DNA of 64,000 nt from Rhea pennata (taxonomy: Eukaryota; Chordata; Aves; Rheiformes; Rheidae): contig NC_084673.1 of the NCBI RefSeq assembly GCF_028389875.1, positions 19,009,501-19,073,500 of the forward strand, read 5' to 3'. The translations under genes and the position numbers were made by a program. Of this stretch, positions 13,159-54,080 are shown one piece after another (position 1 is the first letter of the stretch; the number at the start of each line of letters is the position of its first letter). A model generated the notes under the pieces. It was given only the letters and a program-made list of their open reading frames with translations, was not told the origin of the DNA and ran no database searches.

Positions 13159-17869
<4,711 letters not shown>

Positions 17870-23700: not shown

Positions 23701-23799
23701 GGGATTAAGTGATGAAAGATGTTAAAGTACCCAACAGCCAAATAAAACCAACCAACCAATCTAGTGCTGAATAGGCACAGTCTTAGTTATCAGGAACCA

Positions 23800-27409: not shown

Positions 27410-30400
27410 TTATTTCATTTTTTTCCTCCCCGCCAATGAGCGCAGTGGCAGCAATCCATCGATCCATTCATTGGCAGCAGACATCATCTCGTGCCAAAAG
27501 GCCACCTCCTCTTGCGTGGAGTCCATCCAGTCCACAGAGATGCCATAGCTCAAACCTTAGGAAGAATAAGAAGACGGTAACATTAGGAACAGCCCACAGA
27601 GTTTTTACTCCACACAAAAATACTCAATGGGATGTAAGTGCTGCAGGTAGGGTCTTAGCCTAAAAGGTGCTGAGTGCTGCTTGGCAAGGTGCACCCTCAA
27701 CACCTCTTGTTCCTCTGCTAAGGACCTCCACTTTACACCAGAGTTCAGAATGAAGTCAATGTAAAAGACCCAAATCACAAGAACTTTAAATGTGATCTGC
27801 CATGGAAAATAATATTGGGCTCAAGCTCTTCCTTGCTTCTTTCAGAGTGGTAAAGAGGGTCTAAAAGGCTTGCTTTCCCCCTTAAGAAATCTTGTTGTGG
27901 ACAGGAAGGGGTATACATCAAAATTATCTTGCTCTACATTTCATTTACTTAGGAATCAAACATATGATATTGTAAAAGTGTGTACATTTAATTCCAAGTT
28001 GATTATTCAACCAAATTTTCACATGCCTATTACTTGTCAACTACAGATCTAAATTTGATTCATAGCTAATCTTGGGGTTAGTATTTTCATATCTTGTCCA
28101 TAAGCTTATTCCTGTTGCCACTTCACACTGGACAGTTTACAACACTTCTGGTGACATGATAAAGACTGAAAACGGAGAACATAAAAGTAAATCTAATAAA
28201 CCTAAGTGCACCTGCAAGGCAGACCTTCCAGCTGCTACAGGCCTTTCCCAAATACCCTCAAGGGACAATTTTCTTTTATCACAACCCCCTGGGATCTTCT
28301 GTCTGTCTTTCGTCTCTCAGGGAGTCCTCTTGCTTAATAATAAATACACCCAGTTTAGAATTTTTTAGACATCCCACTTACTTACAAAAAAATACAAAGT
28401 TGAACATGCAATCTGTAAAAGCCTTGATATGGGGTACACTGAAAGCGACGATAGGACATTCAGAAAGGGATAAACCTCCACGACTTACAGCTGGGCAATG
28501 AAATACAGTCCCATCTGCTCTTTACAACTGAGATTTAAAAATATTGGACGTTTTCCTATCTTCAAAAGTGAGTAATCTCACTAAGTGAAACTCTTCAAGC
28601 TAAGCACAAGTCTAAGTCCTCCTCTGAACTAGAACCTCACGCCATTAACTCCTAGAGACAGAGACCATCTCCCAGTGAAGCAAAGGACACCTCAGCCACA
28701 GTCTTTCAGCACTGTATCATCTGAACCAAAAAATACACATTTTTTCCAATTTGTGCTTTACTTCCAGTTGCTGTAGTTTCAGTGCTGGCTCTCTACCAGA
28801 ACAAATAGTGTATCTAGCCCTGGTTCTCAAACAGCAGTTACTCCTGCTACTGAAGTATTTTAAGGGAGGAGGCGACATGAACAGAGTCACCAGGTGGTGC
28901 TGTCCCACGTGGTATTCAAGTTTCTATATTTTCATCTTCCTCTGTGAACACTCTTCACTCAGAGAAACAGAAATATATTAATGAGTAACATAGCCTCCTT
29001 GGGAAGGATAAGAGAAGTAAAGCTCTCTGCTATCTTCTGGAGCCAAGGCTTGAGTTCTTGAGTTTTGCCAGACTAGGGAGTTGATGTCGGCAGAAATTGC
29101 TGGAACAGCTGCCATCACAGTACTGGCGTCTGCTCCATCCCAGACCAACATGCGTGGTTGAAGTAGCAAGATCCACACTAATTACTGAGACTCCCCATGC
29201 ATTGCAGATGCTCTGCAACTTATCATTATATCATGTGACTCAGCAATATAGTAAAAGTGCTCATTTAAATGTAAAGAAAATTGCTTACCTGTCCCAAGGC
29301 CCAGCCTGATTCCTCCAAGGAAATGGTTGGTTAGTTTTTCATGATCCCACACAGTCAGTTCAACGCAAGCATCCTTTAGATCCTCTGTGTGAAAACCATC
29401 ATACACAATAGTATGATTGAAAACAGGGTTTGTGTCTCTTTTTATAACTCGGGTCTTCTGGTAACTCTTCTTACTTGTGTCTGGAAGCACATAGCTTTGA
29501 GAGGAGAAAAAAATACAGCATGTAGTACAGAATATCACTGAGGTTTCAGTTGCTCCTACAAAATTCTATACATGGGTCTAAACACACCTTAATTGTGAAA
29601 TAAGGAGGAATTGGGTCTCAAAGTATAAGAAGTCTCTATAGATTTAATGGGAAATGTTGATAATTCCTGGACCAAATCCTTTTTGCAAAGAAAATCCAGT
29701 TTTTAAGCAAGTACTTTCAGAAAGGAGGGTACAAACTTTAAAATTCCCTGCTTTCAGCAAAGCTTTTGGTAGGTTGACACTTTAAATAAAGAGATGGACA
29801 TTACTTTCAGATATTTCTGTTTTCATAGTTTTTCATCATTTAAGTGCCAAAGAATGCATTTCAAAATATTTATTCTTACTCAACAAACTTTTATTCAGGA
29901 GAATTCCATAAGGGTTTGAAATATATGGAAAACATGGTGAGCACTTCAAATGTCTCAAAAATCTTGAAATTCCTTTAAATTATTTTTAATTTTCTGGAAT
30001 ATTTGCAGCACCTTCTCCCATGTAACAGGCAGACCTTATCTCCCAGGCTGCAGAAAACATCCACACACTGAAAGCTGGAGAAGACCACAGCTGGCTCCAA
30101 GTGCCTATATGTCAGTCCTAGTGAGTCCCTAACACATTCTCAAACTTTGCACACAAGTTCGTATCACAGTAAAACTCCCAACTTCACATGAACGCACTGA
30201 GCTGAGGCACAGCACCCACACATTTCTTCCAGTAAGACATTATTGAGGTAAAATCACTTAGTGAGTCACAGATATTGGTTGACTGAGAACTTTATCACAG
30301 CAAGGATTTTTCTAATTTGGTCCCAAGCAAATAACAAGGGCAATTCTTCATCCCTACAGAACACGAGGTAACACATACGCTTTATAGGATGGAAGCACTG

Positions 30401-30603
30401 TTAAGTGAGCTGGAGAAAAGAGAAGAAAAAAAAACACTGCTTTGTACGTTCAACCCCTCTCTGGAGACAAAGACCCAACATCAAAGCATGTTCATGCACT
30501 TACCATTTCACAAAGGAATCAACTCCAGAAGGACGCAACTGCAGCAGGTCCTTGACATCTTTGACCCAAATGTGAACTTCACCAGAGGGGGGATTCTTGG
30601 GAC
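27410..30603 (-). CDS. SYTL2-like: SYTL2-like exons 14-16: C2B domain and C-terminus
   Basis: Exons 30603-30504 ([20 protein letters not shown]), 29494-29289 ([52 protein letters not shown]) and 27555-27410 ([20 protein letters not shown] ... LLPLRS, ending GRKKMK). VDWMDS and the preceding GLGTG are Slp C2B signatures. Calcium-ligand positions are mostly replaced, as in other Slp C2B domains. The stop is TAA at 27412-27410. Confidence 0.94.
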
Positions 30604-33600
30604 CTGCCATTTAGGAGAAGAGACAAACTCTCACGCCAGTCCTTACATAGCTAGCAAGAAGACAGGCTTCCTCTCCAGGGACTGGAGGGAGCAGAAATAT
30701 GACCTCTCTGTGTACTCACTTCATCAGGAGCTCTGCACTCCTCTACCTGCGTCCCATATTGTTACCACCAGCCCTCCACGCTTGCAGCTGCGGAGGGCAC
30801 CCAGTACCACTTGCTGGTGCTGCTTTGAAGCAGCAAAGAAGAACAATTTCTGAGCGAACTCTAAGCTCGTGCCTGCCCCATGATAAGAGGGACTGCATGT
30901 TGCTGCCATCACATCATAGCAGTGCCTATGGTGATCGTAACAGCTGCTGAGTTTAAGGCTGTTGAGCCCTTCCTCTCTTCCCTCAGTCTCCCAATAAATC
31001 CAGACTTGCAAATCACATATAGTCTGCAGATGGTGCTAAGAAGCACCAGTGTTGTGCCGTTGTGCTGATCTCTTAAGATCTTGCTCTAATGAGATTAGTC
31101 TTTAGCTAGCCCTAAAAGAGATGAGGCATTGCAAACTGCATACCTATGAACAGGCAATACTTCTTCTTAATGTGCAAAATATATTACCTAGGCTTCCTGG
31201 TGGGACATACTTAATAGACAAATTCATCACTCCTCGATGATCCACACCATTAATGGCAGAAAGACTCTGAAACAGAAACAGTTATGACTGACTAAACAAG
31301 GGCTTGTGTTAACACCACAGGGCAAGCAGCTTTTGAGTTTAATGCAGGGGCACAAACAGACAAGCTCTGATTTTGCATGGCTAAAACAGCCCATTCTCAG
31401 GGGCAGCCCCTTACTTTGTGATTCTGTTCTCAACCTTAGTCCATCAGAACTAAACGCTTGAGGATTCACAGCAAGGTTGCCCTTCGAGATGTGACCAGCT
31501 TGTGTCCAGATAACTAAACATCTCATTTCCAAAAGCTGGCTGTCCTCTATTTTCTGAAAAGGGATCTCAGATCAGACCTCTGAACCCAGAAGCATTCAAG
31601 AAACCGTACAGGCCTTATGAGAACTGGCACCTGAATATTTACCTCCCAAGGCATGTCCGATCACATCACCTAGTACTCTACTGTTTTTTCAGGGATAGTC
31701 TTTGAACGAATACAGAGAGAGGCAGAGGAGTTTCTGTTGATTAGTGTCAGATCACATTTATGAAACTCATTATCCCCAGAGAGCGGTCGTAAAATAAGAC
31801 CCAAGAAGGTCTGTGTTTTGAGCACTGCAAATATTGCACTAACATGGCCAGGGCTTGGGGCTGGGATGGAGGAGTTGTTTTACTCTCCAGGGTGCAATTC
31901 AGGCTGTTTGGCTCCACCTCACTGCCCAGAGACCTCAAGGGAGCCTTCCCTTCATGCAGGAAATTCACTGCCATGGTGCAACGCAGAGCAGCCGTCTGCA
32001 GGGCCTTCGGCCAGGGGCAGCGGGGGCTCAGCGGGACAAGCCCTGAGCTAACACAGCCCTGCTCAAGCAGCCAGAGAGGGCTTCTGCCACCCCGCAGGGC
32101 TCTGCAGTTGGGCTACGAAGCAGGACCGCAGCTGAGAGGCACTCACCCGGGGCTTCAGCGTGTACCAGTTGAGTTTCCTGTTACTCCAGTCCCAGCTGGC
32201 CAAGTCTATTTCGATCTCTCCCAAGAAACTGTTACGTCCCAGTGGGTCATTGTGCCAAACAGAGAGATTTAATTTTTGGATCAGCAATACCATTTTCTCT
32301 ATTTTATACTAGAGGAAGAAAGAGAAGCCAGGTTGTTCAAACCCTTGTGTTTTTAGCTCCAAAATTAAAATTTTCACGAACTGCTTTCAAAACTGGAAAT
32401 AAACTACTTAAAAGCTTGAACTAGCTGTGACTGAGAGCCACAAACTCATTCCACACATGCTCTTAAGGACTGGTCCTGCTCTGAACAACTCTTTTTTGTG
32501 CTGCGGTGATACCACCAGCACTCTAATAAAGCTCTTTTGCTGAGCATAGGGAAACTTAGCGCTCTTTTCTTCTTAGGACAAAACCAATTATTCTTTCAAG
32601 AATTATTAACATAGGTCTGGACATTGTTAAATAATTCTCTATGCTTTGATGAGTAAGATCACAGAATAAAGATCTGTCTTAATAGTCCCATGCTTTATGA
32701 CTGCAAGGCAGGGAAGGTAAGAAGAAATAAATAGCAGAGATAATCACATGAGCATTCAGAAATCCCTTCACCCCCAAACAATCCTTATACTGTATTCAAG
32801 AATCCAATAGAACAAACAAACCCTGAAGCCATCATATCTAAAAGTCTGAGCCTGACTCATAATGTGGGACTTACAGTAATATATTTAGGGATTCTCTTTT
32901 ATTTGCCCTCTGATTTTCAGCCTTTAGCATGCATTCATATTTTCACACTTACACCAGTGGGATCAGAGGACTTTTTGACACTGTTCTGGGAGTGGTAGTT
33001 TTGGGGAATTTCTTTTTGCCCTTTTAGTGCAACCTGAAACATTGCTGTCTGAAGCTCCTGCTATCAGAGCAGCTTATGGAAAGTCTCCAGTTACTAGACA
33101 CATTGGCATCCTCTAGTCTCCTGCTTTTAATGTATAGCAAGGTGACTCCTGCCTGATTCGGTTTGCTTGTTTTCACCCTCCAGTTCTTACAAAAAGATTG
33201 AAAGCATCAGTCAAACCAGCAAGTACAAATTTCTGATTTTTCAGTAGTTCAGAAGCTATTCAGAAGTCACATTTCTCTCTGGCTCCTTTCTCCTCAGTTT
33301 TCTGCAATCTGTCACTTTTCTCTGGTCCCTAATTTCCAGAGACAGTGTGAATCCATCCATTTGTCAGCTATTCCCCTCCCTTCCAGCTTCCAGTTCCCAG
33401 ACCTAAGGATGGTGCTTCAAGCTCCTTCCCAGGGAGCAGTCGCAGCTGCCCCTGGGCATTCGGGATGCCCTCACCAGCCTGATCGCAGTGTTTAGCAGAT
33501 GAGTAAGTAAGTACAACAGCACAAAGACTCACATGCCACCTTCCACACAGCCAAATCCATAGTCTCTGTCAATTCCCTTATTTCCAGTTCTCCCCATACC

Positions 33601-36600
33601 ACTGAATGTATTCAACAGTAAGCAGTAAATTCTCCTCCTCCGATGGAGGATGAGATGTAGCTGTGGCCACAGACTAAACACACACCAACCAGCCGGCACA
33701 CAGGAGCTGTGCAGGCCCAGCTCCTTCTCACTGTCTATGAGAAGTTCACACTCATTTCCCCCGCAGCATCACAGCCCCAGTGTTGTCCCCTAGTGTTACC
33801 AGGAAGCAAGTGAAGGACCCCTATCAAGAGGCTCTTTCACCATCTGGCCTGGCACAGCTGCCTGCTACAACACAATTTTTCACAGCATGTATTTGTGCTT
33901 ACCCTTAACACCTCATTATAAATGGGATTCACTGTTCTCTTCTTCACTGAGGTTTTCCTCTTACCCATTCTAGCTTTGTCTGGGAGCAGATAAGTTTTGA
34001 CATACCTGTAAAAGAAAACAAACTCCAGCTGGGTATTCGTCAGGATCACCACACTCTAATAAGTGAGTGAGATTTCTGAATGGTGACCTGGAATTTATGG
34101 GAACAAAAGACCCAGAGTTGACTCTCTGGAGCCAAAACTAATTAAGAGATCTGCTAGGGTGTTAACTTGGCTTGCACTAAACTTATAAATCTCACTGGCT
34201 GTGGATGGATACCACCAATATTCAGAATAAGCAGCTCCCTAGCCAATCTGCAAAGCCAGCAAGGATTTAAACATGGCCATATACCTATTTTCTGAAATGT
34301 TTGTAATGCAGCATCTCTGCACCTTCAAAATCAGGGTGAAATAAGAGAGGAGGGAAGCAGTGGAATGTCTCAAGGACTCTGATTTTAAGTCTCTCTCCTT
34401 CAGGGTTCAAATCTGAGCTTATTTTCATCACCAAACTAGAGATCGCCAACCTCTGTAAAACTGCCATTGTGTTACCTGATGGCACTTCTAAGGTTTTCTT
34501 TTTGCAAGGACATGTGTCTACATCTCCAGAGGTACTACTGAAATGCATTTGCCACAGGGAGACCAAGAAAGAACACATTCTTGTGATAACAGAAACTGTC
34601 TTTGTAGTGATCAAAGCGCACTCAATCTAATTCAGATTTTAGTCTACAGCAACATTTCTACTGATGCCAATGGCTCCAGACCATCAGCTGGAAAACTCCC
34701 AGCAGTAAGCATGCACCAGAAATCTGGAGGAGGGAGGAAAACATGACATTCACAAAGAAAAAAAAACACAAGAAAAAAAAATACTCCAGAACACAAAATT
34801 CCACAGTTTAGAAGTCATGAGGCACCCACGGATCAGATCTGCCTTTCTTCTCATCCACAACAGCTAGGTCCTTGCACTGGGAGACATGAATCTGGAACTC
34901 CCGGTTCTTCTCATCGTAGTCTAAAGCAAACTCAACGGTACCTTGGGCATCCACACTCCCAAAATCGCCACTGTAAACGCTGAGCACACTGCCACTCACC
35001 TGCCAAATGGAAAAGTAAAGTTAGTGCTATTGAAATAGGCAGCCTCCTGACTTGGTTTCTGGACCAAGAGGATGGTCTGAAAAGTGCATTCCCAGAGAAA
35101 CAATCTGCATATTCTGTTCCACAGTAGTACTACGCTCTTGACACAGTAGTGGTGCACATCTGCAGCTGCACTCACACGAGCAAGGGCTGCGGAACCAGGA
35201 TTTAAGAGAATGAGAACAGGACCTGAAAAAGGGTCTCATAGGGATGTGCTATTCCAGACTAAAATTAAGAAGCACTAGGTGACTGTTCTCCTGAACGCTC
35301 TACCAACACCTAACATTTTCACCCTCAATCCCAAAGCATTAGTCAACTGAGTCCAATCTAACTGGGTACCACGTGAGTCCTTCCCTTCGCCACACCTGCA
35401 GTAAAAATGGCTGCTGTCCTGACCCAGTCGCATCATTAAGAAATATATTGAGAGAACTTGAACTATCTTTATACAAACTTCTTACTTCTGGTAGATGGAG
35501 TTTCCTCTCATTCAAATTTTAAATTAGGCTAGTAAAACTCATACCAATTAGAAATATATGCCAAGCTATTACTATCCTGTTGCTTGCTCATAATGTGCAT
35601 GGAGCTGTACAAAACAGACATAAACACAGTCTCTGTCTTGAAGAGCCAGTGTCCCACCAGACACTGTTGCCTGTGTGTGTCCACTAACCACAGATGCACA
35701 CAAAAATGAGGTTTCGGCAAGTATTAAACATGAATTAAGCACCCAAGAGCCACTGCTTTCCTGGAACAATTTTTTTATTTGCCCGTAGGCCTTGGGATTC
35801 TTTTTTCAAGGGTTTAAGTCTTCCACTGGTAGAAAGTGATGAAGCAGAAACAATACACAGGTCCAGAGGTCCAGAATGATGAGAAAATTTTCCATTGCAC
35901 AAATCAGTCATTATTACTGATGGGATAACATAAAAGGCTTACAGTTTACAAAGCAAATAACTAACCCTCTTGGCACATTCTATGATACAGTCATGCTCAT
36001 TTAATCAGATAACTTCCCTGATAATTAACCTAATTCTTCTCTCTCTCCTACTTCCTTTGGTTCTTAATTTCATTCTATTTTAGCCTACAAGAACCTACTA
36101 AATATCTCCTCTCACTTTTTGGAGTTACATTTACCACCCAATTAAGATACTCACCTCAACAGAGAATCTAGACTGAGATATTCAGGAACATGTGACTATG
36201 GACACAAAAGGCTCATTTAATGCTCCAAGACGCTCCAAACACAGAGAACGACTCATATGCCCCAAAGTTCTTTTTTTTTGGGGGGAGGGGGGGGAGGGAG
36301 TACTGTTTGTTGTTTCTTTAAATGTTTATCTACTTTCATGACCTCTCCCTACAAGCCTTGCTTCACTTATATTCTTTAAACCTCACATACATGTTTTAGA
36401 GCTGTCTTCAACAAAAACACAGCAAACTTGAGCCCTTTTAAGTAGTTCCCTGCAAAACACTGGCTATTAGGAATCCCTTCGACATGCCTAACTAAACATA
36501 CTCAGCTCTTTTAAGCTTTCCTTAGAAGTAAAGCTCTAAATAACACTTCTGCTGTCCACACCTTTGCTCTGAATTCTCTCTGGTCTGCTGATAAAGGGAA

Positions 36601-39600
36601 GGATGAGCTTGCAGAGGGCACCAGTTTGCAGTCCTAGCCCTGCCGCAGCTGGATCACGAACAAGTCACTTTATAGCTGTGTGTCTCATTTCCTCACCTAA
36701 AAAATGGGCACTCATTTCTCTGCATACTGCCAGACTTCAGAGAAGCCACACTTTGGAGAAGGGGCTTACCCTCAATTTGGCTAATATTGGTCCAGTAGGT
36801 CTCTAATTTGGGATGGTACCTTGAAATATTATTGTAACACAAGTAAGTTACAATCACCATCATTCTTTTAATACTGTACCATGCAGAAACCAACAGGATA
36901 CTCTAGAGGCCATATCATCAATATCAGCTTAAATGCAGTGTCACCGTATCTGACAGCAAAAGAAACCCTTTCCAGCGAGATGTACGCGTTAAGTACCTAC
37001 CGAGGAGACAGATGCCATGTCGGAGGAGTGGCTGCCAATGCTAGGCGTCTTTTTGTGCTTGTTAAACTGGAAGCTGATTTCTGAAGCCGTGTCTGATTCA
37101 GTCTGCTCAGAAAATAACAAGCATCTTTAAGCCCCACAGTATGACCACTTTGAAATACTACAGAGGAAAAACAACAGCTCAGCAGAGCCCCATGAAACAG
37201 AGTGCAGGTTACAAGAGCGGAGGAGAGTGCAGGCAGCCTCCCTAGAGGCATTCCCTCTGACCGACAGAGCAAACGTCATCATTAACTGACTCCAAACAGA
37301 CCTGAATGCAGCCACCCAGACTCTTAGGAAGAGCATGTAATGGTGTGGTTTGAGGCAGAGGGAAACACTAAAACTGTTACAGGATAGAAGGGTTGGTCAG
37401 GATTAATGAGATTTTTTCTTACGCTTTTTTCTCATTTATTTATGACATAAATGAGGCATCCTCTAGAGCAAGCACTGTCAGTGTCTACAAGAAACACTTT
37501 CTTGCAGCTGACTGGCATTCAGGGGATGCTGTGATTATTATTCCAGCAAATTAAGATTTCAGTCCTACCTCAGACAGCAGGAGAGGAGAGGATCTGCTCA
37601 GCTCTTTCACTCTGTTAGGTTCAAGAAACTGATGGGGTATCAAATGAGGTTTATTGTACGCTGTAGGTACAAACAAAAAAAAGGCAACAAGTTATTTTGT
37701 CAGAAGGATAAAATATAAGAAAGTCTCATTCTTGATTAAGGTCACAAAGAAGGAAAAAGACCTAATGGAAGGCACTGGAGTATCATGCACTTGCCCCATC
37801 TCTGTTGTTGGGCTCTGAAGCTGGACCCTCCCCAAGACAAGAACTGCTAGTTAAAATTTTAAAGCTATTTTCAAATTGTTTTCGTTCAGTGTGTGGTAAT
37901 GTGTATTCTCCCTCTAGTGGCTAATTTAATATGCTTATTAGCCTAAAGATGCAACTTGTTTGAACCACTTTATCTGTGTAGATGTAATTTAGAATGAAAA
38001 CACACAAACCTGCCCCCTGTCAAAGAAACAAAACATGCTAACATTTTCATCTCATCACATCCTGCATACAATAATGCCTATACGAAAAAGATATGAAATA
38101 TTTATATCTACAATTTCAGCATTGCATACACATCTCAAATATTCTGCTAGGCAGACCAAGAGATGGGCAAGGGAATGTCTAAAAGAAAAAAGTGTGAAAG
38201 ATTCAAAAATGCATCAAGTTAGAGAGAAGGCTACTAGACTGCTTAAATGTCTAACTAAAACGTATTTGTTCTATTTTTAACTTTCTTCAATAACTTCCTT
38301 GATGACAAACCTCATTTCAAAATAACTAGTTTGGTTTTAGATGATATATGTAGATAAATAGCTTTGCATATATACACACTTGCTTAATGCTAGCCATGCT
38401 GATAGAGTATTCAATGCTCAAGATGCCCAAGAGCTTCTTTGATAGTAAAGATGTCTATTTAGTATTTTTACTTCTAAACATGAGCAAAATATTAAATTTA
38501 CCCTCTCTGCAGGTCATTTGTTAAATTGTAAACAAGGAAGTGCAACACAGTAGAGGAGGGTTTCCCAGGGTGAAGTTTGGTGTCCCAATTAAGTTTTAAT
38601 ACAGCGAGCATAAAATCCTGATTTTCTCTGGGGAGACCAAGACGTTGAACTGCGATTCGTGGGGGATCTGAAGCTTCATGACACTGCCTCATAAGACAGC
38701 TCGCTCTGTCATACGATGGGGAATGCATTTGGTGTGAGGTCACCTGATGGTGTGCGACAGACAAGGCAATACAACGTGCAGTATCCACAGAGCCCTGTTG
38801 GGGACTTCCCTCCTTGTCATAAATAGGAGCTGGGTTTACTTAAACAAATACGCTCTATCCTTTCCTCTGAATAGCTTTACCTTTACTTAGGCATTATCTT
38901 CACAATCTTTGCCATCTCAGTCTTAGGCCTTATGTTTTGGTTTTATGCAAGCTCTTAGCCGCTTTCTTGGGCCTGGCAGCTTTCAACCACAAGTGCCTTT
39001 CTTCTCCAAGCCCTCTCCCTTGCTGCTGCTTCCTTCGGCTGCTCAGTAGTGCAAATAGGTTTCCCGGCCGCCGACTTCTTGAGCTTTGCTGCTGCTTCCT
39101 GGATTGCCTTCTCCTTAGCCTCTCTTGGTTTCTCAAAAAGAAACCCCAAACACGAACTGGGTTCAGCTGGTAGCTGGGGAGGGGATTGGGCCAACAAGCT
39201 CGGTCTGACACACGGGCTCTTGGAGAGGGGGAAATGGCCAGGTTCAGTGCTGCGAGCAGCAGAGGCACAGGTCCCAGAGTGCCTGTGGTGGGAGCTGACT
39301 TGCAGGCTGTGTGCACGGTCTGGCGTACCTGATGGACCTGCTGAGCGGGCCGCCATATGGCCTGGTCCCACAGTACATCAACAGGGAAGAGGAGAGATAG
39401 GGACAAGCTTTTTGCCAAACCTTTGAAGCCCTCATGCTCGTTCCTGCACACACTGTGTAACATACCATCCATCTAGCTGCAATTTCCTGGCTCTCAATTT
39501 AATTTTAGGCACTATAAGCTCTCTAATTTGATGATGAAACAATATGTCATTTTCCTTGCCTGGTACAAGCACAGAAGCACCAGGGATGCAGAACTCAGAT

Positions 39601-42600
39601 GTATTATATTGCCTTCAGGGAATGTGAACCAAAAAGCAGAAAGGAAGATGTTACTCACTCTCTGTGGTTGTGTAAATGTTCACCATGCTCTTTGCAAGAT
39701 TAACGCTGTTTGCTCGGGCCAAAGCCTGAGCAGCGGGAGAACGATTTCCATCTTTCTCTGCAATATAGAAAAATCCAATCAACATGGTGAATAAACACAA
39801 ACAGGCAGTGTGTCAACAACCGTCTGTGTGAGTGTGTGTGTCTGTCTGTCTGCTGGCTTGTTCACTCTGCTTACAACACATCGCAGTTACATTACACAGG
39901 GCTGCTTCCAAATCATCTCTCTTTAATGTCTCTCCCCATGAAAAGCTCTTCACTCTATGATGGAAAATGAGAACACTGGATTAACCCAGCCCCCCAAACA
40001 GATCTTCCAATGTAACACAGCCATCTGCTAATATCATCCTGAAATGAATGTAAAAATAATGCAAGAAATGTGAGAAATGTTAAGAATGATCTGGTATATA
40101 AAGGAAATATTTCTGTTTACTTGTAGTGCAACTCAGGATTTTGACGGAGATGTTCTGTGGGGTAGATAATAAGCCAAGAAATGGCACTGTTAAAAATGAA
40201 AATCAACACAGTGAATGAAAATGAAAATCAGGCGAGTGTATGGATAATCCTCTGAAATGCATCTTACTCAATTCTTTGAGGACATTAAATTTGGAAAATA
40301 AGACATAGAGAGCTCTCCCTCAGTCTTTGCTTGGTAGTGAACAAGACTCAGGGCAAACAGAGCCCACATTTAAAGCAAATTGCAGTTAAGAAGAATTTTG
40401 CTCATATTAACAATCACCACAAGAGTCTGTCAAACCCAGAGTAAGAGGCTGATAACATGGCAATACTATCGATACCTTTAGGGTTGAGAACACGGTGTCA
40501 GAGCTCAGAAAGATCAGATGGCTTGTTCAGTCCTCTTTCATTGCAATTTAGTATCCAAATTCACTCGCAGAGCCCCCAAAGGCCAAGATTTTCATTAAAC
40601 ATTGATAGTCAGCTCTGCTCAACTTGAGAAAAGCATGTGGTGGTATCAAGGTAGCCTAATGGCCAACATATTTGTTAAACACATTTTATTTCTGTTGTTT
40701 ATGTCTGATACCATGTAAATAACTTACATACCACCACAAAGAATTCCTCTAGCCCTACATTTGAAAAAAGCACAGACTTGCCAGATAGTGAAATAAAATG
40801 AGTTCACGTGAGCTGCTGCAGGTAAGGCTAAAGAAATGGAGAGCAGCTCTGAGCTGAAGAGCTGTCAGGGAAGGGATTAGGGCCACCAGGCAGCAAGGAG
40901 GAAGGCAAGGGAACCGTATACCACTGCACTCATCTACACCTGCACTGCACTAAGCAGAAGATTTTAATTTCAGGGGTGTTTGCTGAACACATTCCACACA
41001 TACTAATTTTGCACAAAATGTAAAATGAGATAAACACAGAAATGGAGAAAACGTGCAAAATGCAGAAGGGATCGGGAGGAAAACAGACTTAGGGAAGATG
41101 CTCATTGGGATTTCACAGGGTACAGCTACAGCCCTCAGTACCTGAGTAAACAGCTGAGTCCATTCCCTGTGCGACTGCTCTCTCTCCAGATGGTTCACCA
41201 GGTGTTGGGTTGTCTGAAGACTCGCACATTTTTTCCTCAGGTAGCTCTCCATTTATTTCCATGTTATTAAGAGTGCCCAAATCAGACCTTCGCTCTTTCT
41301 CATCATCTTTCTCACCATCTGCAAGTGTGGGCTCGATCAGTATCTGCACCCTGCTCACAAGTGAATCCACTTGATGCTTGCGCTCTTCTGCCATGATAAA
41401 CTCATCTGTAGGCGTCTCTGGCTCAAATGTGCTGCCAGACACTTCTTTGGTAGGCGACTCTATTTTGATGGAAGGCACTCGCACAGGCAATCTGGATTTC
41501 TTTGAGCAGCACTGTGCTGCCTTCTCTTCCTCTGGCACAGGCAGCTTCCCATTGCTTTCACTCAGCGAGTTATTTTTTGTAGGCAGTGTGCCTTTGCTCT
41601 TGGCATACATGGATCTATGACCGAAGGAAACTGAGCCCTTTCTTGCAGGGACTACGTAGCTTGGTTCTTCCTCACTAGAAGATAAAGTTATTGTCCTTTT
41701 ATAGGGGGTTCTTGTTCTGGTAGAAATGATCGATTTTTCTTCACCGTCCTGGCTTTGGCTGGACTGAACAGAGAGCGAACGGCACAGCCTGAACTGCCTG
41801 GCGTTTGCCTCCACGGAGCTCGGGTCCTCGGAAACATTTCCCCCTGTCACAGAGTCTGCTGCCTTCTCCCAAAAGTTCTTCAAGTTCCTGAAGTGTTCAC
41901 GATCTAGGCCAATATCCTCCTCTTTATTACTCATGGAAGAGATTGTATAGTTCATGCCTTGTTTCACAGTCCGGCTGCTTTCTCCCTCTGCACCAAGTGG
42001 TTTGGAGCTTATCAGCAGCTCCTTCTTTGTGAAGCTGTTCTCAGCTGGGCCTGTGTGATTCTCAGATTGCTCTGATCTGGAGAAAGTTCTGCTTGGTTTC
42101 TTCTTAATCGGTATCTTGCTGGGACCATACATTTCTTCAGGTGGAGTTTTTGCCACTGCTGTGGTGCCAGTGGCCCCACTAACAGCATCTCCTCCAGCTG
42201 AACTGCTGGGTTGAGACACAGCATCCTCGGAAAGCTTGGCCGGCAATGGAGATACTCCATGACCTAAAACATTGACAGATGTTCACATGCAATCTCATAG
42301 TATCACAGAGTATTTCCCCCAGAAGGTTTACGCTACAGCTTCTCAAAGGGAAGCCAGAGGGTAGTCTCCAGAAACCACTAACATTTTCCTAGTCCTTCCC
42401 CATTTTGTAACTTCAGCAAGTCCCTTTCATCTGAAAAAAAGAACAACCAAACCTAGCCCCTCTTTGCCCTTCCTTCTTCACTGTACACACAAAGAAAGCA
42501 TCTTGTCTCTTGCTGTCTGATGCTGAATAATAAAAACTCAAATGGCTCACTGAACAAAAACCTTACCTTTTCGAGACACATGCAAGCTGTCTGTTGCAGC

Positions 42601-45600
42601 CACAAATGGATTTGTTCCAGTGTCACTCTCTGAGGACGAGATATCAAGTGTACTGGATCTCTGAATGGAAAACAAATCCTATCAGTGTATATCAACTGGC
42701 AAGATGGAAAAAATGTCTTTTATTTGAGCACAGACACCAAGGCAGACAGTCTCTGGAGCCCCTGCCAATAGACATAGATTGCATGAAGTTCCAAGGAATA
42801 ACAAAAGAAAATGCAGAGGCCATTGCCGTATTACCTTGTACGATGCATACAGCAGGACAGGACGTCTTGGCTTTGGTTTTGGCAAGACTTTATGCCCCTC
42901 TGCAGTATCAAATGCAACTGCACTGGATCTGTGGGAGATGAGAAACACCTCAGGAAAGAGATGAGGGTAGGACACCCTCTGCGGGCGTCCTCTGCACAGG
43001 CGATCTGCCAGTGCAGTGCCAGGTAAGCTCTGTTCAGTTACGCTGCCACTCCCATCTACTGATCCAGCCCAACATATTCTGGCTCTCCAGAGCTGGTTTT
43101 CTTCATCTCTTTGGAATGACTTGAGGACATGTTAAATGGCCTGAACTTAGAGTAAGGACAAGTCTTCCACTGCAGACAATAAAGAAGTTGCTCAATAAAA
43201 ACAATGGTGTCAACTTCCAGGCTTATTCAGACTTTCCCCCTCTGTGAGAAAACTGTAGGGCAAACATGGGATGTGGCAGTGCTAAAAGAGCACAAAGTTA
43301 CACAGCAGGGAGATGCCTTTCCAAACTTTGACCCAAAAAGGAACAGGTCTGGCTGCTCTACCCTTCTCCACACAGGCCAGCGGCTTAGCCGCATTCACTG
43401 AGAATTTATAAACAGCAGAAATCATTACAACGACAATAGTTAGGACAAAACTATAGTATGGGATATAGATATCCATGCTTGGAATATAAGTTGATTGTAA
43501 ACTACTTGGTAAAAAAAAATAGAAGAAACACACATCACAAGCAGTTTATCTGACTGCTTCTACCTTCCTTGGAAGAGTCCAGTTGTGGTTGTTCTCCAGA
43601 TGAGAAAAGCAGTCACACTGGACCACTGGTGAGATTTAACATAGGAATGCTTTGTGCTTAAGCTTGTCTGAGAAAAATTAAGTTTTTCAGAGTTTAATCA
43701 AAACAAAAGAAAAAGACAAGGAACACTGCTGCGCTGGTAAAGCAGGAGCATCTCGAGCAAGTTGAGGCTGCATTTGTGTTAAATAATTCCCTTTGATCAG
43801 CTGCAAGAGGTCAGGAAGCACTGTCAAGGCCCATATTTAATAATTACTTGGGGCAACTGTCACCTGTGAAGAGTGATTCCTCATTTTGTTGACAAAAATA
43901 CGCAAAGAGATGGGAACTACAGTAAATGAAAATGTGAATATTTTAATGGCTTCTCCATAGCTCGTAAATATTGAGTGAATTCAACGATCTGCTTGGTGAG
44001 GTGCTTTTACTGGGTGTTTCTGCACAGTCAGCAGAACTTGAAATTCTACCAAGCTCTGATGCAGAGGGCTGAGCACTGGACACAGTGGTCAGCGCTGGCA
44101 GGAAATGACCAGTTTCCTAAACAGTTCATTTTGTTAGCATTGCTCCATGGCAAAAATTAAACAAATAAAAATCACAATTACTTTGAAAAACTACCCAGAA
44201 TATCCAGACATTAGCGACAGCTTCCATTTTACTGATGCCTTATCAAATCACGCAGGAAAAACCTTTCTGGGATAAGCACATTACCACTTAGTTACTGGGG
44301 GAGGATTGATATTCTGACAATTCCTGGAAAAGGGATTTTAAAAATATCCTATATCACATATTACTAATAGGGTTTTGGGAATTCAGTTAATAGACCAGGG
44401 TCGCATTCAATTTTCCTTAGAAGTAAGAGCAGCAGCCAGCGCCTGGCGTGAGCAGCCGGGGTGGCGTGCGGCCAGGGTTACCTCTCCTCTCCTGCGCCAG
44501 GAGCACGCTCGGGGACGGGAGGACTTGCGGCTGCTCTGCTGTCCAGACCGCTCCGGATGTGCTCGTTAGGCTCATCTGTTATACAGCAGAGATGATTGAG
44601 AAACGACATGTCAGTGAACGTGCAATAGCCACAATGTTTTACTTGGTGAAAATGAGGGCTCCTTACACGATTCCCACCAGCACAAGCCCTGGGGAATTTA
44701 TGTGGGGCGGCCGATGGGGGTCTGCCTGCTGCCCCGCAGAGCGCGGCCACCAGGGCAGTGTCACCTGCGATCCCCACGTGGCAAAGCACCTCCAGGCCTC
44801 TTGGACCTGAGAGCCCAAACAGAGTTGGCTCATGCCTGACTAATGACAGGAGCTGTCACATCACAAGAAACCTTAGCAGGGCACTGCTGGGGCTGTCAAT
44901 AAAGTTAATCCGTTCCAGGATTTAAATTCAGCTATTTCCTGTTTTGACTCAAAGTCATCCGATCTTGGCAAACAAAGGAGAAGGCCAATACAGTTAATGA
45001 GGAGATCCCTGCTATTTTTACTGGCACAGGGCTCAACTGCGTCTTCTAAGCTCTATCTGACCCTAAAAAAGAAAAATAGCAGAAGACGGTAACCCTTAGA
45101 ACAACCTGCTCAGATAAAAGGTTGCACTAGACATTCAGCTGACAAATATGCTTTCTTGCTACTGTAAAACCATAAAGATTAAAACCTCAGTGATGCAAAA
45201 TTTAGCTTAGTTTGGCCAACAAAAAATACACAAGGTTTGCACGTATTTATTCACATGCAGCTATGTCTATTTAAAAGCGTAAATTCACTTATTACAAAAT
45301 CTGTCAAAACTTTTTTAGCCTAAACTTCCTTACATAATGGAATCAGAGGCTCAAAGGCCTCATACATGACATTAAATAATAATACTGTTATTTGTTACCT
45401 GTTCAGAAAACTCCATCAAACCCAACAGCGGATTAATCCTAGAGCCAGCCTGTAAACACCATTTCTACACCGCCTGGGTGGTGCCATCCTGCCCCAGGGC
45501 AGCCAGCCTGCGGGTAACGGACATATCCCATCGGGAAGCACCGCGAGTCAGAAAACAGCTGCAGTCCCGATGGTTTTCCTCCCGCCTCGCACATGGCCCT

Positions 45601-48600: not shown

Positions 48601-51600
48601 AGGAGGCTGAATAAACAGAAGAACAATCTTTATTGCTGCTACACCACAGCAAGAAATGTAGCTGGGCCCAGAAAACCGGGCTGGACTGGTGGAGATGACA
48701 TTTGAGTTTTGGACGGATGGAAGGTAAGTCTGACTTTACCGCAACAGAAGAGAGGCCAGTGACGACATTAAGGAGCGTGGCAGACTGCTTAGAGCTGTCT
48801 GTCAAAGCCATGGCTTCCCCAGAGCAGCAGCAGCCAGTTACTTCGCAGCCATGTCCGAGTATCTGTGATTACTCACCCCGACAAATAATCAACCTGGATC
48901 TCTTGTGTGAGACTGGGATACAGTCCCAAAGTCCTGCTGCTGAGTCAGTTGGCCTGTCTTCATGTGCAGGACTGGATGTGAATCATCTTCAGTTCTGCTC
49001 TGCACAAATGCTCAGCACAAAGTGCCAGCTCCAGGCTGGTTACATTTGGACTCTAAGCACAGTCCTGCTCATTTCACACAGGGCTGCTTTCTTCTCTTCA
49101 CAGCCCTGAGCCATCAAATCTGATTTGTTCTTTTTTATATACAACCATGAGAGTTCAGCTGCATGTCAAATGACATGCAGTGCATCTTGCCTTCTGCTAG
49201 AATTAGCCCAAGGTCCCAGACATACTTTGCTGAGGCACAGCGGCCTGGGTACTATTCAGACCTGGCCCCAAAGCCCTTTTCACTTTGAAAGCTACCTTGT
49301 GCCTAGGAGTTTCTCCCTCATAGAAAGCTGGGCATGCTGCACTGTACTGACATCCCCCTCTCAGAGGAGGTAATTTCTGCCAGAAGAGAGGCACCCCTCT
49401 CCTTCTGCAGAGCTGACCCCACTGTCCTGGGTTCTGCCCTCAAAGGGGGCTGGTGAGAGCAGCCAGCTATCCTGCTTTTACCGGAGCAGTCTAGGAACTG
49501 GGGGTCTTTGACACAGTTTGGTGCCAGAATTTGTACCATGTCATCCCTTTCCCTAAGTCCTCGGGCAGCTTCAACAGGAAACAATTCCAGCAATCTCTTA
49601 CAAACAGATGTTTTGGAAGAAAGAAACCGAGGTGAGGAGAAGGCATCTACTGCATGTAGCTGGTGCACAGGCTTTACCTCTGCCGCACTGTAAGTTTTTC
49701 CTTGGGCCTTGACTTCGATAATCAGATATTTTTTCTGGTACTGAAAGCTTAGCTAAGAGCCCTCTCACTACATATACAGGTGGTCTCTAACATTACATAC
49801 AAATGGCTCCCTGATATAGGGAGACCTACATACCTAACACATTTTTTCGGACCATCACTTCGTTTTGTTAAGATGCACGCTAACATACTTACTTTCTAGC
49901 TTGCCTTTTTTCCTTCTAATTGATGCCCGAAGCAGATCTGACCCTTCTAAGTCTTCTTGAAATCGTTTTGCCTTCACTTCTGAAAACCATTCACCAGTCA
50001 CGAATTTCTTCTTCTTTTCATCCTTGATGGAGCCCTGAATCCGCCTAAAAGTCAATAAGAACATTACATACTAGAAAGGTCTCCAAGGTTTCAATGTCCC
50101 CAACCTACCTTTATGACCACTGTACATACAGCGGAACTGCCTACTACTACAAAGGATCCAGGGATTTTTTTTTTGCAATCACAAGGGCCAAAAATGCTTT
50201 AAAATGAAAGCTGATTCATGTTTTATTCAGAAAGGAAACAGTACCTTGTAAACACAGGCTTTCACATCTTCCAAACCTTACAAATCCCAAATGGAGCCAC
50301 TTGGCAAGGAGATTTGTCCATTTGTTTTGTACCACAAGGGTTTGGGAAGGGGTAGGGCTACTTACAGATCCTACACTTCTCTGGTTTGCTTGTCTATTAA
50401 CCTCTTTCTGACCTGCAAAAAATTTTTAGACCAAATCTGATGTAAACCATCAAAACGAATTATGTTTTTTAGGGGACCAATCTGGCCCTGTAGCATTCTC
50501 CATAGACATTACTCCTCTCCCTCTTGCCGTGCCAGTTTTGGCACACAAACAGTTAGCTCTCCTTCCTGAACACAGCTTCTCTTACTGTAACTGGCTTGGG
50601 CACACCCAGGGCTGGTTTTTGGCACCTAAACCCGTCAGTGCTCTTTTTGCTAGCCTGCAGTTTGAACTGGCCCCCAGTTATTTTGTTTTGACACAGAGGT
50701 CTGCAGAATTCACTCCCTTTCAGCTGGCACTGCCTCCCACTGCTCGCTAGAGAGACCTGACAGGCCAAAGGAATCAGCCATCTCAATCCAAATCCCAGTA
50801 GGAAGAAGGGGTCAAACATCGAGCTAATGGTGGCTCCTTAAAGGGTCACACTTGCCGGCCTAAAGGCCAGCGTGCCACAAAGGCGTAGGTTTATCTGGCG
50901 ATGGCGTGGGGTAACGGGCTCCCTCCTCAAGCCTTTGCAGTCAGCAAAAGCAATCCAAGCCAGGTAGCTGCACAGTTTCCCCAGCCAGATCGCTCCCACG
51001 AAGGTCTCGAGGAACTAGCCCAGAGGATATTTAGGAACATATTTTAATTTTGCTGACACCCAATCAGTGTAACGCCATTGACTTGGCTTCCCCCAGCAGG
51101 CACCTGTTGACAGCTCTACCGGGGTGCATGCTGGAGACAAGAACATCCACATTTGCCCCAGAAGTCTCACTGCATTTAACTATACTAATGGCAAAGGGCA
51201 CTTGGCACCACCCTCACTTAGGATCTAATCCATGTCATTCTGGAACAAAAGTCTTTTGTGCAGCAAACAAAATGAAAACATTCAAACACTGTTTTTCCCC
51301 CAAATCTCCACTGCAGAGCAGAATTTTTGCTGCATTTCAGGAGGAAAAAAAAGGGAAAAAAGAAAAATAAAAAGTCAGTCATTTATGTTACTATTCAAAG
51401 AGAAAGAAGTGGTTGCAGACACATACACCTCAAACCTAAGTCACTCCCATGCCACCACCAGTTCTCGGTCTCTCTAGCCCATGCCCCTGCATGTGGGCTC
51501 CCCAGAACCTGCTGCAAAGGCACCATACCCCCCTCCAACCCTGAGCAGCCCTCATGCAGGCGCTTACTCTTTTCTGGCTCAACAGCAAGTCAAAGAGTCA

Positions 51601-52506
51601 CATCCTTCACTGGGGTAAACTGGCACCGTGCCACCTGTGCTAACTGAGCTACTCTCATTCCTCCCAGCGGAGGACTCGGTGCCAGCTTCCTAAGCCTGGT
51701 GCATCCTGTCAACCCAGATGGTCTGATAGCTGGCATTTAAAAAGTGACAGCAGCAACAAGCAACCCAGATCAGCCAGACCCAAGCGCCGGGATGCCCAGT
51801 GGTAAGTGCACAAAGCTGACAGCTATTCCTGGCACTGAGGCAGCTCCTGCAAAGCCTCTGGCAGTTGCCATAGCTTCTCCCTACCCCTCGCTGCCTGCAC
51901 AACAGCCGATGCCTAGAGACCCACCTCAAAGAGCACCAGAGGGATCCTGAGAAGAGACGGGAATGGAAAATCTCATTTAAAAAAAAGGTACTCTAAGGTA
52001 CTTCTACGCTACCAGGTGAGCAAAACAAGGTAGCAGCTACTCCTCTACTCTGACCTCAGACACTCAGAAATCAGTATGTTCCTTCCCAGAGCTGGGAAGG
52101 GATGCCTCTTCATACCTCTGAGAGCTACTGCTAACTCAAAAGGAGAGTCTAGCCTTGCAATCCTGCAGAGTGAATGGCAGCAACAGCAGGCTGGCTAAAA
52201 AAGCAGGAAGGGCAAAAAAACCACCCTTCAGGTATGAGCACGAAGGGACAGCACTGCTGCAGCCTGCAGCTCTCCCAGTGTGCGCGCACACACACACACA
52301 CAGACACACACGCATGTGTATACCCCCCTTCTCTCTAAAAGAAGCAGAAAAATCTGCTCTGAGCAGTGGGAGCTCAGAGCCTGCTGTTACCGAATGCTCT
52401 CTCACCTGATACGATCCTCATCCTTCTTCTTCAGCTCTGCATCTCTCTGCAGAACCTTCATTAGCTTCTCGTACTCCTCCTCACTCAGGAAGCTTAAGTC
52501 CAACAT
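27410..52506 (-). CDS. SYTL2-like: Synaptotagmin-like protein, SYTL2 type (Slp2-like), complete 16-exon CDS
   Basis: Coding exons in transcript order: 52506-52406, 50044-49893, 44575-44482, 42928-42835, 42660-42567, 42263-41142, 39757-39659, 37660-37569, 37102-37001, 34999-34830, 34005-33903, 32308-32147, 31266-31188, 30603-30504, 29494-29289, 27555-27410. All have AG/GT borders; lengths sum to 2916 nt and phases agree at every junction, giving 971 residues plus TAA. Domain order: Slp homology domain (residues 1-90) with no FYVE-type zinc finger between its helices, which places it with SYTL1/SYTL2 rather than SYTL4/SYTL5; a 560-residue Ser/Glu-rich linker; C2A (from about 651); C2B (from about 830). 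The C2 pair is closest in my memory to SYTL2. Known family role: Rab27 effectors that tether vesicles to plasma-membrane phospholipids. SYTL2 itself lies at human 11q14, so a gene beside RAB39B is probably an ohnologue. Intermediate alternative exons may have been missed. Confidence 0.93.
31188..34999 (-). CDS. SYTL2-like: SYTL2-like exons 10-13: C2A domain
   Basis: Exons 34999-34830, 34005-33903, 32308-32147 and 31266-31188. The exon 10/11 join rebuilds [18 protein letters not shown], with the polybasic [11 protein letters not shown] following; exon 12 holds [20 protein letters not shown]. By alignment from memory to synaptotagmin-1, calcium-loop aspartates are partly kept (VVD, SDP and the ND of WHND) while two loop-3 positions are His and Ser, so calcium binding is likely weak or absent. 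The basic strand could bind acidic phospholipids. Exon 10 starts directly with GTGAGT after its CAG acceptor. Confidence 0.94.
36271..36300. repeat. T9 / G-rich tract
   Basis: A T9 run followed by G6AG8AGGGAG on the plus strand, within the SYTL2-like intron between exons 9 and 10. Simple sequence; its G runs could form a G-quadruplex. Confidence 0.8.
37001..39757 (-). CDS. SYTL2-like: SYTL2-like exons 7-9: C-terminal linker
   Basis: Exons 39757-39659 ([10 protein letters not shown] ... [14 protein letters not shown]), 37660-37569 ([20 protein letters not shown] then [10 protein letters not shown]) and 37102-37001 ([20 protein letters not shown] then [14 protein letters not shown]). Junction phases are 1/1, 1/0 and 0/0. 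The last exon runs straight into the [14 protein letters not shown] start of the C2A exon, a transition seen across Slp proteins. Confidence 0.9.
38930..39480 (-). other. Possible old processed-pseudogene-like segment in an intron
   Basis: Inside the intron between SYTL2-like exons 7 and 8. Two overlapping minus-strand frames look more protein-like than their surroundings: one opens with [19 protein letters not shown], which vaguely resembles the end of an SLC25 mitochondrial carrier; the other has [20 protein letters not shown], a charged helix. I could not name a parent gene and see no clear poly-A tail or target duplication. It may be chance. Confidence 0.2.
41142..42263 (-). CDS. SYTL2-like: SYTL2-like exon 6: large linker exon (1122 nt)
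   Basis: One exon encodes about 374 residues of low-complexity, mostly disordered linker rich in Ser, Glu, Lys and Pro. Visible elements are [31 protein letters not shown] (a helix also recalled from SYTL2-like linkers), [18 protein letters not shown] and EPETPTDEF. The true exon starts upstream of the TTG that a simple ORF finder would use: GT CAT GGA after TTTTAG, completing a Gly codon with the preceding exon. The donor is TCAG|GTACTG. Confidence 0.9.
42567..44575 (-). CDS. SYTL2-like: SYTL2-like exons 3-5 (three 94-nt linker exons)
   Basis: Exons 44575-44482, 42928-42835 and 42660-42567. Exon 3 ([20 protein letters not shown]...) is the least certain, but it is the only piece I found that enters in phase 1 and leaves in phase 2, as its neighbours require; its donor is AG|GTAACC. 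Exon 4 carries the basic-proline stretch [17 protein letters not shown]. Exon 5 carries [18 protein letters not shown], a Ser/acidic then NPF motif. NPF can bind EH domains in other proteins; whether it does so here is unknown. Confidence 0.8.
46313..46437. repeat. Compound microsatellite (ATGT / TATA / CA / GT)
   Basis: About 125 bp of alternating purine-pyrimidine sequence: ATGT tetramers, TATACACA blocks, a (CA) tract, then TGTGTGTGTGTGCG. It lies in the SYTL2-like intron between exons 2 and 3. Such sequence is prone to Z-DNA or cruciform formation and to length variation. Confidence 0.9.
47890..47957 (+). mobile_element. CR1 LINE 3'-end fragment
   Basis: AGAGGTCCCTTCCAACCTCA followed by ACCATTCTGCGAATCTGTGA closely matches the conserved 3' terminus of avian/reptilian CR1 elements, which end in short ATTCTRTG repeats. 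Only the last 60 or so bases are clear; upstream sequence is too degraded to follow. The element is plus-oriented in the SYTL2-like intron. Confidence 0.75.
49893..52506 (-). CDS. SYTL2-like: SYTL2-like exons 1-2: Rab-binding Slp homology domain
   Basis: Exon 52506-52406 begins with ATG and encodes SHD1: [20 protein letters not shown] and a basic/acidic helix ending DRIR. Exon 50044-49893 encodes SHD2, with the hallmark [13 protein letters not shown] and [11 protein letters not shown]. In Slp proteins the (S/T)GxWF motif contacts Rab27. Exon 1 ends in AG and exon 2 starts with G, rebuilding an Arg codon. The zinc finger present between SHD1 and SHD2 in SYTL4/5 is absent. An AG at 52527-52526 or 52512-52511, just upstream of the ATG, may be the acceptor of a 5' UTR exon. 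Confidence 0.92.
52278..52320. repeat. (CA)n microsatellite
   Basis: GTGTGCGCGCACACACACAC followed by more CA units and ACGCATGTGTA, about 85 bp inside the intron from the SYTL2-like first coding exon donor (52405). Confidence 0.85.
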
Positions 52507-53784: not shown

Positions 53785-54080
53785 GGCAAACCTGATTTGA
53801 AGGTGATCTAGTCCCCTCCTTAGCATCAAGGCCTGCATCACCCCTAGTCGCTGTCTGCCTAATCTGCCCCTATAATCCTTCTCTGCAGCCATCTCCATGT
53901 AGTTCCAGACTTAAAGGGTCTTCCCTCAGCCTCTATCTAAATGTAACAACTCCAGCTCCTTCAGCTGCTCCTCAGAGTTGTGCTTTCGATCATTTTTGTC
54001 ACTCTTCTTTAAGCTGTCTCCACATGATATAAATCTTCCTTGAATTGACATATCCAAATCTGAACACAAATATTTCTACT
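53785..54080 (-). mobile_element. Degenerate CR1 LINE fragment
   Basis: Read on the plus strand, the order GTGATCTAGTCCCCTCC, then GTTCCAGAC, CAGCTCCTTCAGCTGCTCCT, CACTCTTCTTTAAGCTGTCTCCA and finally CAAATCTGAACAC follows the order of landmarks in the antisense of a CR1 3' region, so the element is on the minus strand. Identity is low and the copy is old. Confidence 0.6.

What the first reader, a model, noticed from the sequence alone, without database searches (positions are those of the whole stretch)
27410..52506. A complete SYTL2-type Slp gene sits beside RAB39B, where human Xq28 has none
Sixteen exons join without a phase error into 971 codons with SHD, linker, C2A and C2B. The sequence shows a zinc-finger-less SHD and SYTL2-like C2 signatures. 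To my knowledge human SYTL2 is at 11q14, not far from RAB39A (11q22), and human Xq28 runs VBP1-RAB39B-CLIC2 with no SYTL gene. The simplest reading is that RAB39A/SYTL2 and RAB39B/SYTL2-like are paired ohnologues from genome duplication and that mammals lost this copy.
Basis: partly seen in the sequence, partly recalled or inferred. Interest (0 to 1): 0.75.

Follow-up and report, generated by a model that had tools for sequence, protein, structure and literature searches.

The report
Sixth synaptotagmin-like gene beside RAB39B
This bird-like genome carries a sixth, apparently intact member of the synaptotagmin-like (SYTL) vesicle-tethering gene family next to RAB39B, an ancient sister of SYTL2 that the human lineage appears to have lost.

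Summary
The gene is real. On the minus strand, 52506-27410, lie an SHD without cysteines, a long linker, and C2A and C2B domains, 9.8 kb from RAB39B, with VBP1 beyond. I placed 13 exons; the last 11 join in frame to one terminal stop. It is not a moved SYTL2: the genome search found six SYTL loci, and the SYTL2 orthologue is at C1:209.8 Mb (SHD 49/53 identical to the solved mammalian SYTL2 SHD; the window gene 28/53). A six-gene tree pairs the window gene with SYTL2 (ultrafast bootstrap 98), with SYTL1 next; one alternative is only borderline rejected. Adding mammalian SYTL2 puts the duplication before the bird-mammal split, with modest support. Chromosomes pair up: SYTL2/RAB39A on C1, this gene/RAB39B on C11, SYTL1/RAB42-like on C23; myotubularin, melatonin-receptor and CLIC genes tie the same blocks. 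A published gene list of the human RAB39B interval names no SYTL gene. Best reading: a vertebrate genome-duplication copy ('SYTL6') lost on the human lineage, probably still a Rab27 effector. No other vertebrate genome could be searched, so its spread and date of loss are open.

The parts
52406..52506 (-). exon 1 of the SYTL gene: start codon and SHD first helix ([33 protein letters not shown])
   Evidence: 34 columns align with the SYTL2 exon on L040, 23 identical (67.6%)
49893..50044 (-). exon 2: rest of SHD with TGEWF motif, no cysteines
   Evidence: exons 1-2 match the SYTL2 SHD 3bc1_B, E 3.2e-13
42567..42660 (-). probable linker exon (acceptor choice uncertain)
   Evidence: donor score 7.2, chain stays in frame
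41199..42263 (-). long linker exon; donor may be 41316, 41199 or 41142; weak match [10 protein letters not shown] to the giant linker exon of SYTL2
   Evidence: 389-aa open frame; E 0.039 to the SYTL2 giant exon among 154 open frames tried
39684..39757 (-). probable short linker exon (weak donor, 1.2)
37001..37102 (-). last linker exon, ESDTASE...VSSV, homologous to ETDTASES...LSSV in SYTL2
   Evidence: 57% over 37 columns, L019
34830..34999 (-). C2A exon 1
33903..34005 (-). C2A exon 2
32147..32308 (-). C2A exon 3
31188..31266 (-). C2A-C2B link exon
30504..30603 (-). C2B exon 1 ([10 protein letters not shown])
29289..29494 (-). C2B exon 2
27410..27555 (-). last coding exon (VDWMDST...) and stop
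13162..17644 (-). RAB39B, two coding exons, same strand; its start codon is 9.8 kb from the SYTL stop codon
   Evidence: (human protein as recalled)
2341..7069 (+). VBP1, five matching stretches
   Evidence: human protein as recalled

Best explanation
The gene is a sixth synaptotagmin-like gene (here called SYTL6), produced with SYTL1 and SYTL2 by the early vertebrate genome duplications from one zinc-finger-less SYTL gene that lay near a RAB39-type gene. Shown here: the SHD-linker-C2A-C2B layout, agreeing intron phases, the SYTL2-sister position, and the matched chromosomes. Inferred: the SHD binds GTP-Rab27 on secretory or lysosome-related organelles, and the C2 domains hold the plasma membrane by binding phospholipid without calcium, so that the protein docks vesicles before fusion, as is proposed for Slp1 and Slp2-a. 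Also inferred: the human lineage lost the gene and makes do with SYTL1 and SYTL2.
For: Six SYTL loci found in one genome. The SYTL2 orthologue is elsewhere: 49/53 identity to the solved SYTL2 SHD 3bc1_B (mouse, as I recall; the output names no species) against 28/53 for the window gene. Tree of six genes over 374 columns: window gene with SYTL2, SH-aLRT 96.1 / UFBoot 98; alternatives AU p 0.040 and 0.051. Quartet with 3bc1_B: the duplication predates the bird-mammal split, SH-aLRT 95.9, alternatives AU p 0.041 each. The window gene's branch (0.27) is no longer than that of SYTL2 (0.34), so it is not decaying fast. RAB39A C1:199.04 Mb, RAB39B C11:19.02 Mb, RAB42-like C23:4.40 Mb, on the chromosomes of SYTL2 (C1:209.8), window gene (C11:19.04-19.06) and SYTL1 (C23:4.85). 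The three best myotubularin matches are at C11:15.14, C11:15.17 and C1:204.29, which I read as MTM1/MTMR1 and MTMR2. Melatonin receptors at C11:15.34 and C1:205.51. CLIC genes at C11:23.05 and C23:5.72, read as CLIC2 and CLIC4. The SHD keeps a TGEWF motif and matches the SYTL2 part of SYTL2-Rab27A fusion chains (7opp and others). Slps bind switch II of GTP-Rab27a through the SHD and phospholipid through C2 domains (PMC9088006, passages). Gene names of the loci outside the window are my assignments from similarity and recalled human synteny.
Against: The AU test does not quite exclude (SYTL1,SYTL2) as the closest pair (p 0.051). In the quartet, KH and SH tests are borderline (0.052), and it rests on 53 residues. 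The families used to show the paralogon were chosen from prior knowledge of human Xq28, 11q and 1p36, not blindly; melatonin-receptor and CLIC families also have members on other chromosomes, and myotubularins on many. SYTL2 and RAB39A are 10.7 Mb apart. No expression data. About three linker exons are unconfirmed and several splice sites are weak. No Rab27 binding was tested.
Confidence: 0.82

Rival explanations
1. It is SYTL2 itself, moved to a new chromosome in this lineage.
For: Its nearest relative in the genome is SYTL2 (228/363 identical).
Against: A separate SYTL2 locus, with 49/53 SHD identity to the solved mammalian SYTL2, its own giant linker exon and the C2 exons, is at C1:209.796-209.839 Mb.
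Confidence: 0.01
2. A bird- or reptile-specific duplicate of SYTL2 that landed next to RAB39B by chance, so mammals never had it.
For: Only one genome was available; the pairing with SYTL2 alone would fit; the quartet test is based on 53 residues.
Against: Mammalian and bird SYTL2 group together with the window gene outside (AU p 0.041 for the alternative, KH/SH 0.052). Divergence from SYTL2 (63% identity) is as deep as that between SYTL4 and SYTL5 (62%). The neighbourhood repeats across three chromosomes.
Confidence: 0.09
3. The gene is decaying or already a pseudogene.
For: No expression data; several weak splice sites; part of the linker unresolved.
Against: 11 exons read in frame to one terminal stop, start codon and SHD exons intact, branch no longer than that of SYTL2.
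Confidence: 0.05
4. An intact Slp that no longer uses Rab27 but another Rab, possibly the neighbouring RAB39B.
For: The SHD is only 28/53 identical to mammalian SYTL2; the Rab gene next door has stayed linked.
Against: The TGEWF motif and the helix [11 protein letters not shown] are kept; linkage of ohnologues needs no functional partnership.
Confidence: 0.08

Closest known systems
SYTL2 (Slp2-a, exophilin-4)
   Same: SHD without cysteines, long linker with an outsized exon, C2A and C2B; 42/78 SHD, 96/143 C2A, 90/142 C2B identical to SYTL2 of the same genome; C2A loop 3 reads WHND in both
   Different: A distinct locus beside RAB39B; the linkers hardly align; SYTL2 of this genome carries a 195-bp tandem repeat in its giant exon, the window gene has no such array
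SYTL1 (Slp1, JFC1)
   Same: SHD and tandem C2; 199/357 identical; lies with the RAB42-like and CLIC4-like genes on C23
   Different: Outside the pair of window gene and SYTL2 in the best tree; its matched exons span only 3.3 kb
SYTL4 and SYTL5 (granuphilin type)
   Same: Tandem C2 whose matches end at the same exon borders; VTGEWF in the SHD of SYTL5, as in the window gene
   Different: More distant: 132/252 and 142/288 identical (after a register fix); their SHDs carry zinc fingers (recalled)

Membership tests
Synaptotagmin-like protein (Slp/SYTL) family | N-terminal SHD | tested here: met
   phmmer to the SYTL2 SHD 3bc1_B E 3.2e-13
Synaptotagmin-like protein (Slp/SYTL) family | tandem C-terminal C2A and C2B | tested here: met
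   Pfam C2 in two exons; exon-by-exon match to five other SYTL loci
Synaptotagmin-like protein (Slp/SYTL) family | binding to GTP-Rab27 | not testable with these tools
   only sequence similarity is seen
Synaptotagmin-like protein (Slp/SYTL) family | no transmembrane segment | not tested
   no topology tool was run
Zinc-finger-less Slp subgroup (SYTL1/SYTL2) | SHD without a cysteine zinc finger | tested here: met
   the 84-residue SHD of exons 1-2 contains no cysteine
One-to-one orthologue of mammalian SYTL2 | groups with mammalian SYTL2 inside the SYTL2 clade | tested here: not met
   49/53 for the C1 locus against 28/53 for the window gene; quartet
Ohnologue from the early vertebrate genome duplications | lies in a paralogous block with other duplicated families | tested here: met
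   RAB39, myotubularin, melatonin receptor, CLIC; families chosen in advance from recalled human synteny
Ohnologue from the early vertebrate genome duplications | duplication older than the bird-mammal split | tested here: met
   SHD quartet, 53 columns, AU p 0.041 for both alternatives; KH and SH borderline 0.052
Ohnologue from the early vertebrate genome duplications | present in several vertebrate classes | not testable with these tools
   the collections on hand offered no other vertebrate genome

The most novel reading that the evidence does not exclude
A Rab gene and a Slp effector gene have been kept on the same chromosome in three copies since before the vertebrate genome duplications, and the RAB39B-SYTL6 pair, still only 10 kb apart here, works as a functional unit in which SYTL6 serves RAB39B as well as Rab27. 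Losing SYTL6 would then have left human RAB39B, an intellectual-disability gene (PMC4422130) also linked to Parkinson disease (recalled), without its original partner.
Probability: 0.07. Interest if true: 0.75.

Novelty: new member of a known kind. Interest (0 to 1): 0.46.

Why it matters
The Slps are listed as five, Slp1 to Slp5, in work on mouse and human (PMC2329822 and PMC9088006, passages). A sixth, SYTL2-sister gene means that the vertebrate ancestor probably had at least three zinc-finger-less Slps, that work in birds on Rab27-dependent secretion may have to count one more effector, and that gene names carrying 'SYTL2' outside mammals may mix two genes. It also adds a gene to the RAB39B neighbourhood that the human lineage appears to be missing.

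Tried and rejected
Translocated SYTL2: rejected, second locus found. An ab initio chain for the middle linker gave implausible exons (for example 46775-46617) and was dropped; a stricter scan between 49800 and 37110 left only the 42695-42567 region and one at 37660-37569 that I did not use. Comparing 154 open frames of the linker region with the SYTL2 locus gave mostly weak matches; the one kept (E 0.039, giant exon to giant exon) is suggestive only, and a stronger one (E 3.6e-5, 47975-47880 to L039) looks like a shared dispersed repeat, since the same place matches in a second frame. The tree and one identity count had a SYTL5 block out of register by one column; the tree cited is the corrected one, and the corrected identities are. 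A first run of that tree with 500 bootstraps ended at the time limit with no output. In the SHD quartet I had filled one unread SYTL1 residue by guess; one search repeats it with that position blank and gives weaker support (KH and SH from 0.042 to 0.052), and the numbers cited are. Pfam on 52600-64000 (six frames) and 17700-27400 (six frames) found no family over its cut-off; one DUF5888 match far below its cut-off was ignored. Not scanned with Pfam: 1-17699, the plus strand of 27401-52599, the minus strand of 40001-52599, and one minus-strand frame of 26001-40000. The genome searches score only the best candidates, so six SYTL loci is a lower bound; weak SHD-like matches at C2:50.26 Mb (E 0.036) and C1:198.78 Mb (E 0.73) were not followed. 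Literature: 'SYTL6' 1 paper, a sea cucumber study not opened; sytl2a/sytl2b/SYTL2-like terms 4 papers, from their titles not about this gene; RAB39B plus SYTL 13 papers, none on birds or family evolution judging by titles; Slp/SYTL2 with evolution terms 9 papers, 8 listed, none on SYTL family evolution judging by titles; SYTL1-5 plus chicken 0 papers; SYTL with ohnolog or avian terms 73 papers, the 15 listed hold neither SYTL1 nor SYTL2, the other 58 unseen. Two more searches served other points: Slp domain terms, 0 papers; RAB42/RAB39 terms, 6 papers, not opened. Genome annotations in public databases could not be consulted, so automatic annotation of this gene elsewhere is likely and unchecked.

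Full report
What is in the sequence. The window lies at G000:C11:19009501-19073500 of a 1.27-Gb assembly in 180 contigs; size and chromosome lengths suggest a bird, which I infer and did not test. On the minus strand from 52506 to 27410 there is a gene with an SHD, a linker and two C2 domains. I located 13 exons. The SHD exons (52506-52406, 50044-49893) and the C2 exons (34999-34830, 34005-33903, 32308-32147, 31266-31188, 30603-30504, 29494-29289, 27555-27410) have AG/GT borders with agreeing phases. Adding linker exons 42660-42567, 42263 to one of three donors, 39757-39684 and 37102-37001 gives an 11-exon tail that reads 727, 766 or 785 residues with one terminal stop. Several sites are weak on my simple matrix: donors 34830, 31188, 41199 and 39684 and acceptor 42263.

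Is it SYTL2? A search of the same genome with the joined conserved exons of the gene found exon clusters at six places: the window; C1:209.796-209.839 Mb; C23:4.853-4.856 Mb; C11:7.126-7.131 Mb; C1:125.559-125.594 Mb; C3:61.829-61.836 Mb (only the best candidates are scored, so this is a lower bound). I name the five others SYTL2, SYTL1, SYTL4, SYTL5 and SYTL3. Two names have direct support from solved structures: the C1:209.8 SHD is identical to the SYTL2 SHD 3bc1_B (mouse, as I recall; the output names no species) at 49 of 53 positions, the window gene at 28 of 53, and the C11:7.1 C2A is identical to SYTL4 (3fdw) at 92 of 117. The names SYTL1, SYTL3 and SYTL5 rest on similarity and recalled human sequence and positions. 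So the window gene is a sixth gene, not SYTL2 moved.

Where does it branch? On 374 aligned columns (SHD, C2A, C2B; SYTL3, SYTL4 and SYTL5 fill only 217, 255 and 292 of them), the window gene pairs with SYTL2, with SH-aLRT 96.1 and ultrafast bootstrap 98; SYTL1 is next and SYTL3/4/5 lie outside. Pairing it with SYTL1 is rejected (AU p 0.040); pairing SYTL1 with SYTL2 is just short of rejection (AU p 0.051; KH and SH 0.040). Leaving out the long-branched SYTL3 does not change this (96.9/98). Identities: window gene to SYTL2 228/363, SYTL1 199/357, SYTL4 132/252, SYTL5 142/288, SYTL3 90/207; SYTL4 to SYTL5, 158/255. With 3bc1_B added for the 53 shared SHD positions, mammalian and bird SYTL2 group together and the window gene stays outside (SH-aLRT 95.9; alternatives AU p 0.041 each, KH and SH 0.052). 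As a side check, the C2 domains of human SYTL2 as I recall them are 111/149 and 115/136 identical to the C1 locus and 92/146 and 90/136 to the window gene. The duplication therefore most likely predates the split of birds and mammals.

The neighbourhood. RAB39-type genes fall on the same three chromosomes: RAB39A at C1:199.04-199.05 Mb, RAB39B in the window, and a RAB42-like gene with the same exon break at C23:4.402-4.403 Mb. Other families tie the blocks: the three best myotubularin matches are C11:15.14, C11:15.17 and C1:204.29 Mb, out of 66 matches on many chromosomes; three close melatonin receptors lie at C4:33.95, C1:205.51 and C11:15.34 Mb; CLIC genes include C11:23.05 and C23:5.72 Mb among five loci. 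The C1 members RAB39A, MTMR2, MTNR1B and SYTL2 sit within 199.0-209.9 Mb. I chose these families because I recalled their human positions (Xq28, 11q, 1p36), so this is a test of a prediction, not an unbiased scan; CLIC and melatonin receptor families also have members on chromosomes outside the three.

The human side. In the int22h1/int22h2 Xq28 interval, the genes listed are part of F8, FUNDC2, CMC4, MTCP1, BRCC3, VBP1, RAB39B and CLIC2, and the word SYTL does not occur in the main text (PMC4422130, passages and term count). Slps in work on mouse and human are given as Slp1 to Slp5 (PMC2329822 and PMC9088006, passages). If the duplication predates the bird-mammal split, the human lineage lost this copy. 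Whether all mammals did is untested.

How it works. [quoted passage not shown] Slp1 and Slp2-a localise to the plasma membrane of cytotoxic T cells; single knockouts kill normally while a dominant-negative SHD reduces killing (PMC2329822, abstract and passages). The window protein keeps the SHD helix and TGEWF. Aligned with synaptotagmin-1, C2A loop 3 reads [10 protein letters not shown] where synaptotagmin-1 reads YDFDRFSKHD, so two calcium-ligand positions (recalled) are not aspartate, as in SYTL2; I expect calcium-independent membrane binding. Rab27 binding and docking are inferred. The 52000-54750 stretch around the start codon has no CpG island, unlike RAB39B, which would fit tissue-restricted expression but proves nothing.

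Verdict. A real, intact-looking and ancient sixth SYTL gene; new member of a known kind. The searches named in Tried and rejected found no paper describing it; database annotation could not be checked.

Noticed in passing
L055:539-2126 (G000:C1:209812539-209814126): The giant linker exon of SYTL2 in this genome holds about 8.1 in-frame tandem copies of a 195-bp (65-residue) unit, 96% matches, probably a recent coding repeat expansion.
   Followed up: partly
G000:C11:23048408-23051724: The best CLIC2 match, which in human is near RAB39B, lies 4 Mb away on the same chromosome here.
   Followed up: no
window 16750-18500: A CpG island (68-82% GC, CpG observed/expected 0.94-1.05 in 500-base steps) covers the RAB39B first exon and probably explains long open frames on both strands there, such as 16850-18004.
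   Followed up: partly
window 47880-47975: A stretch within the SYTL gene's span matches DNA at the SYTL2 locus (L039) in two frames, probably a dispersed repeat.
   Followed up: no
G000:C23:4402238-4403297: A RAB42-like gene is 450 kb from SYTL1, a third RAB39-type/SYTL pair on one chromosome.
   Followed up: yes
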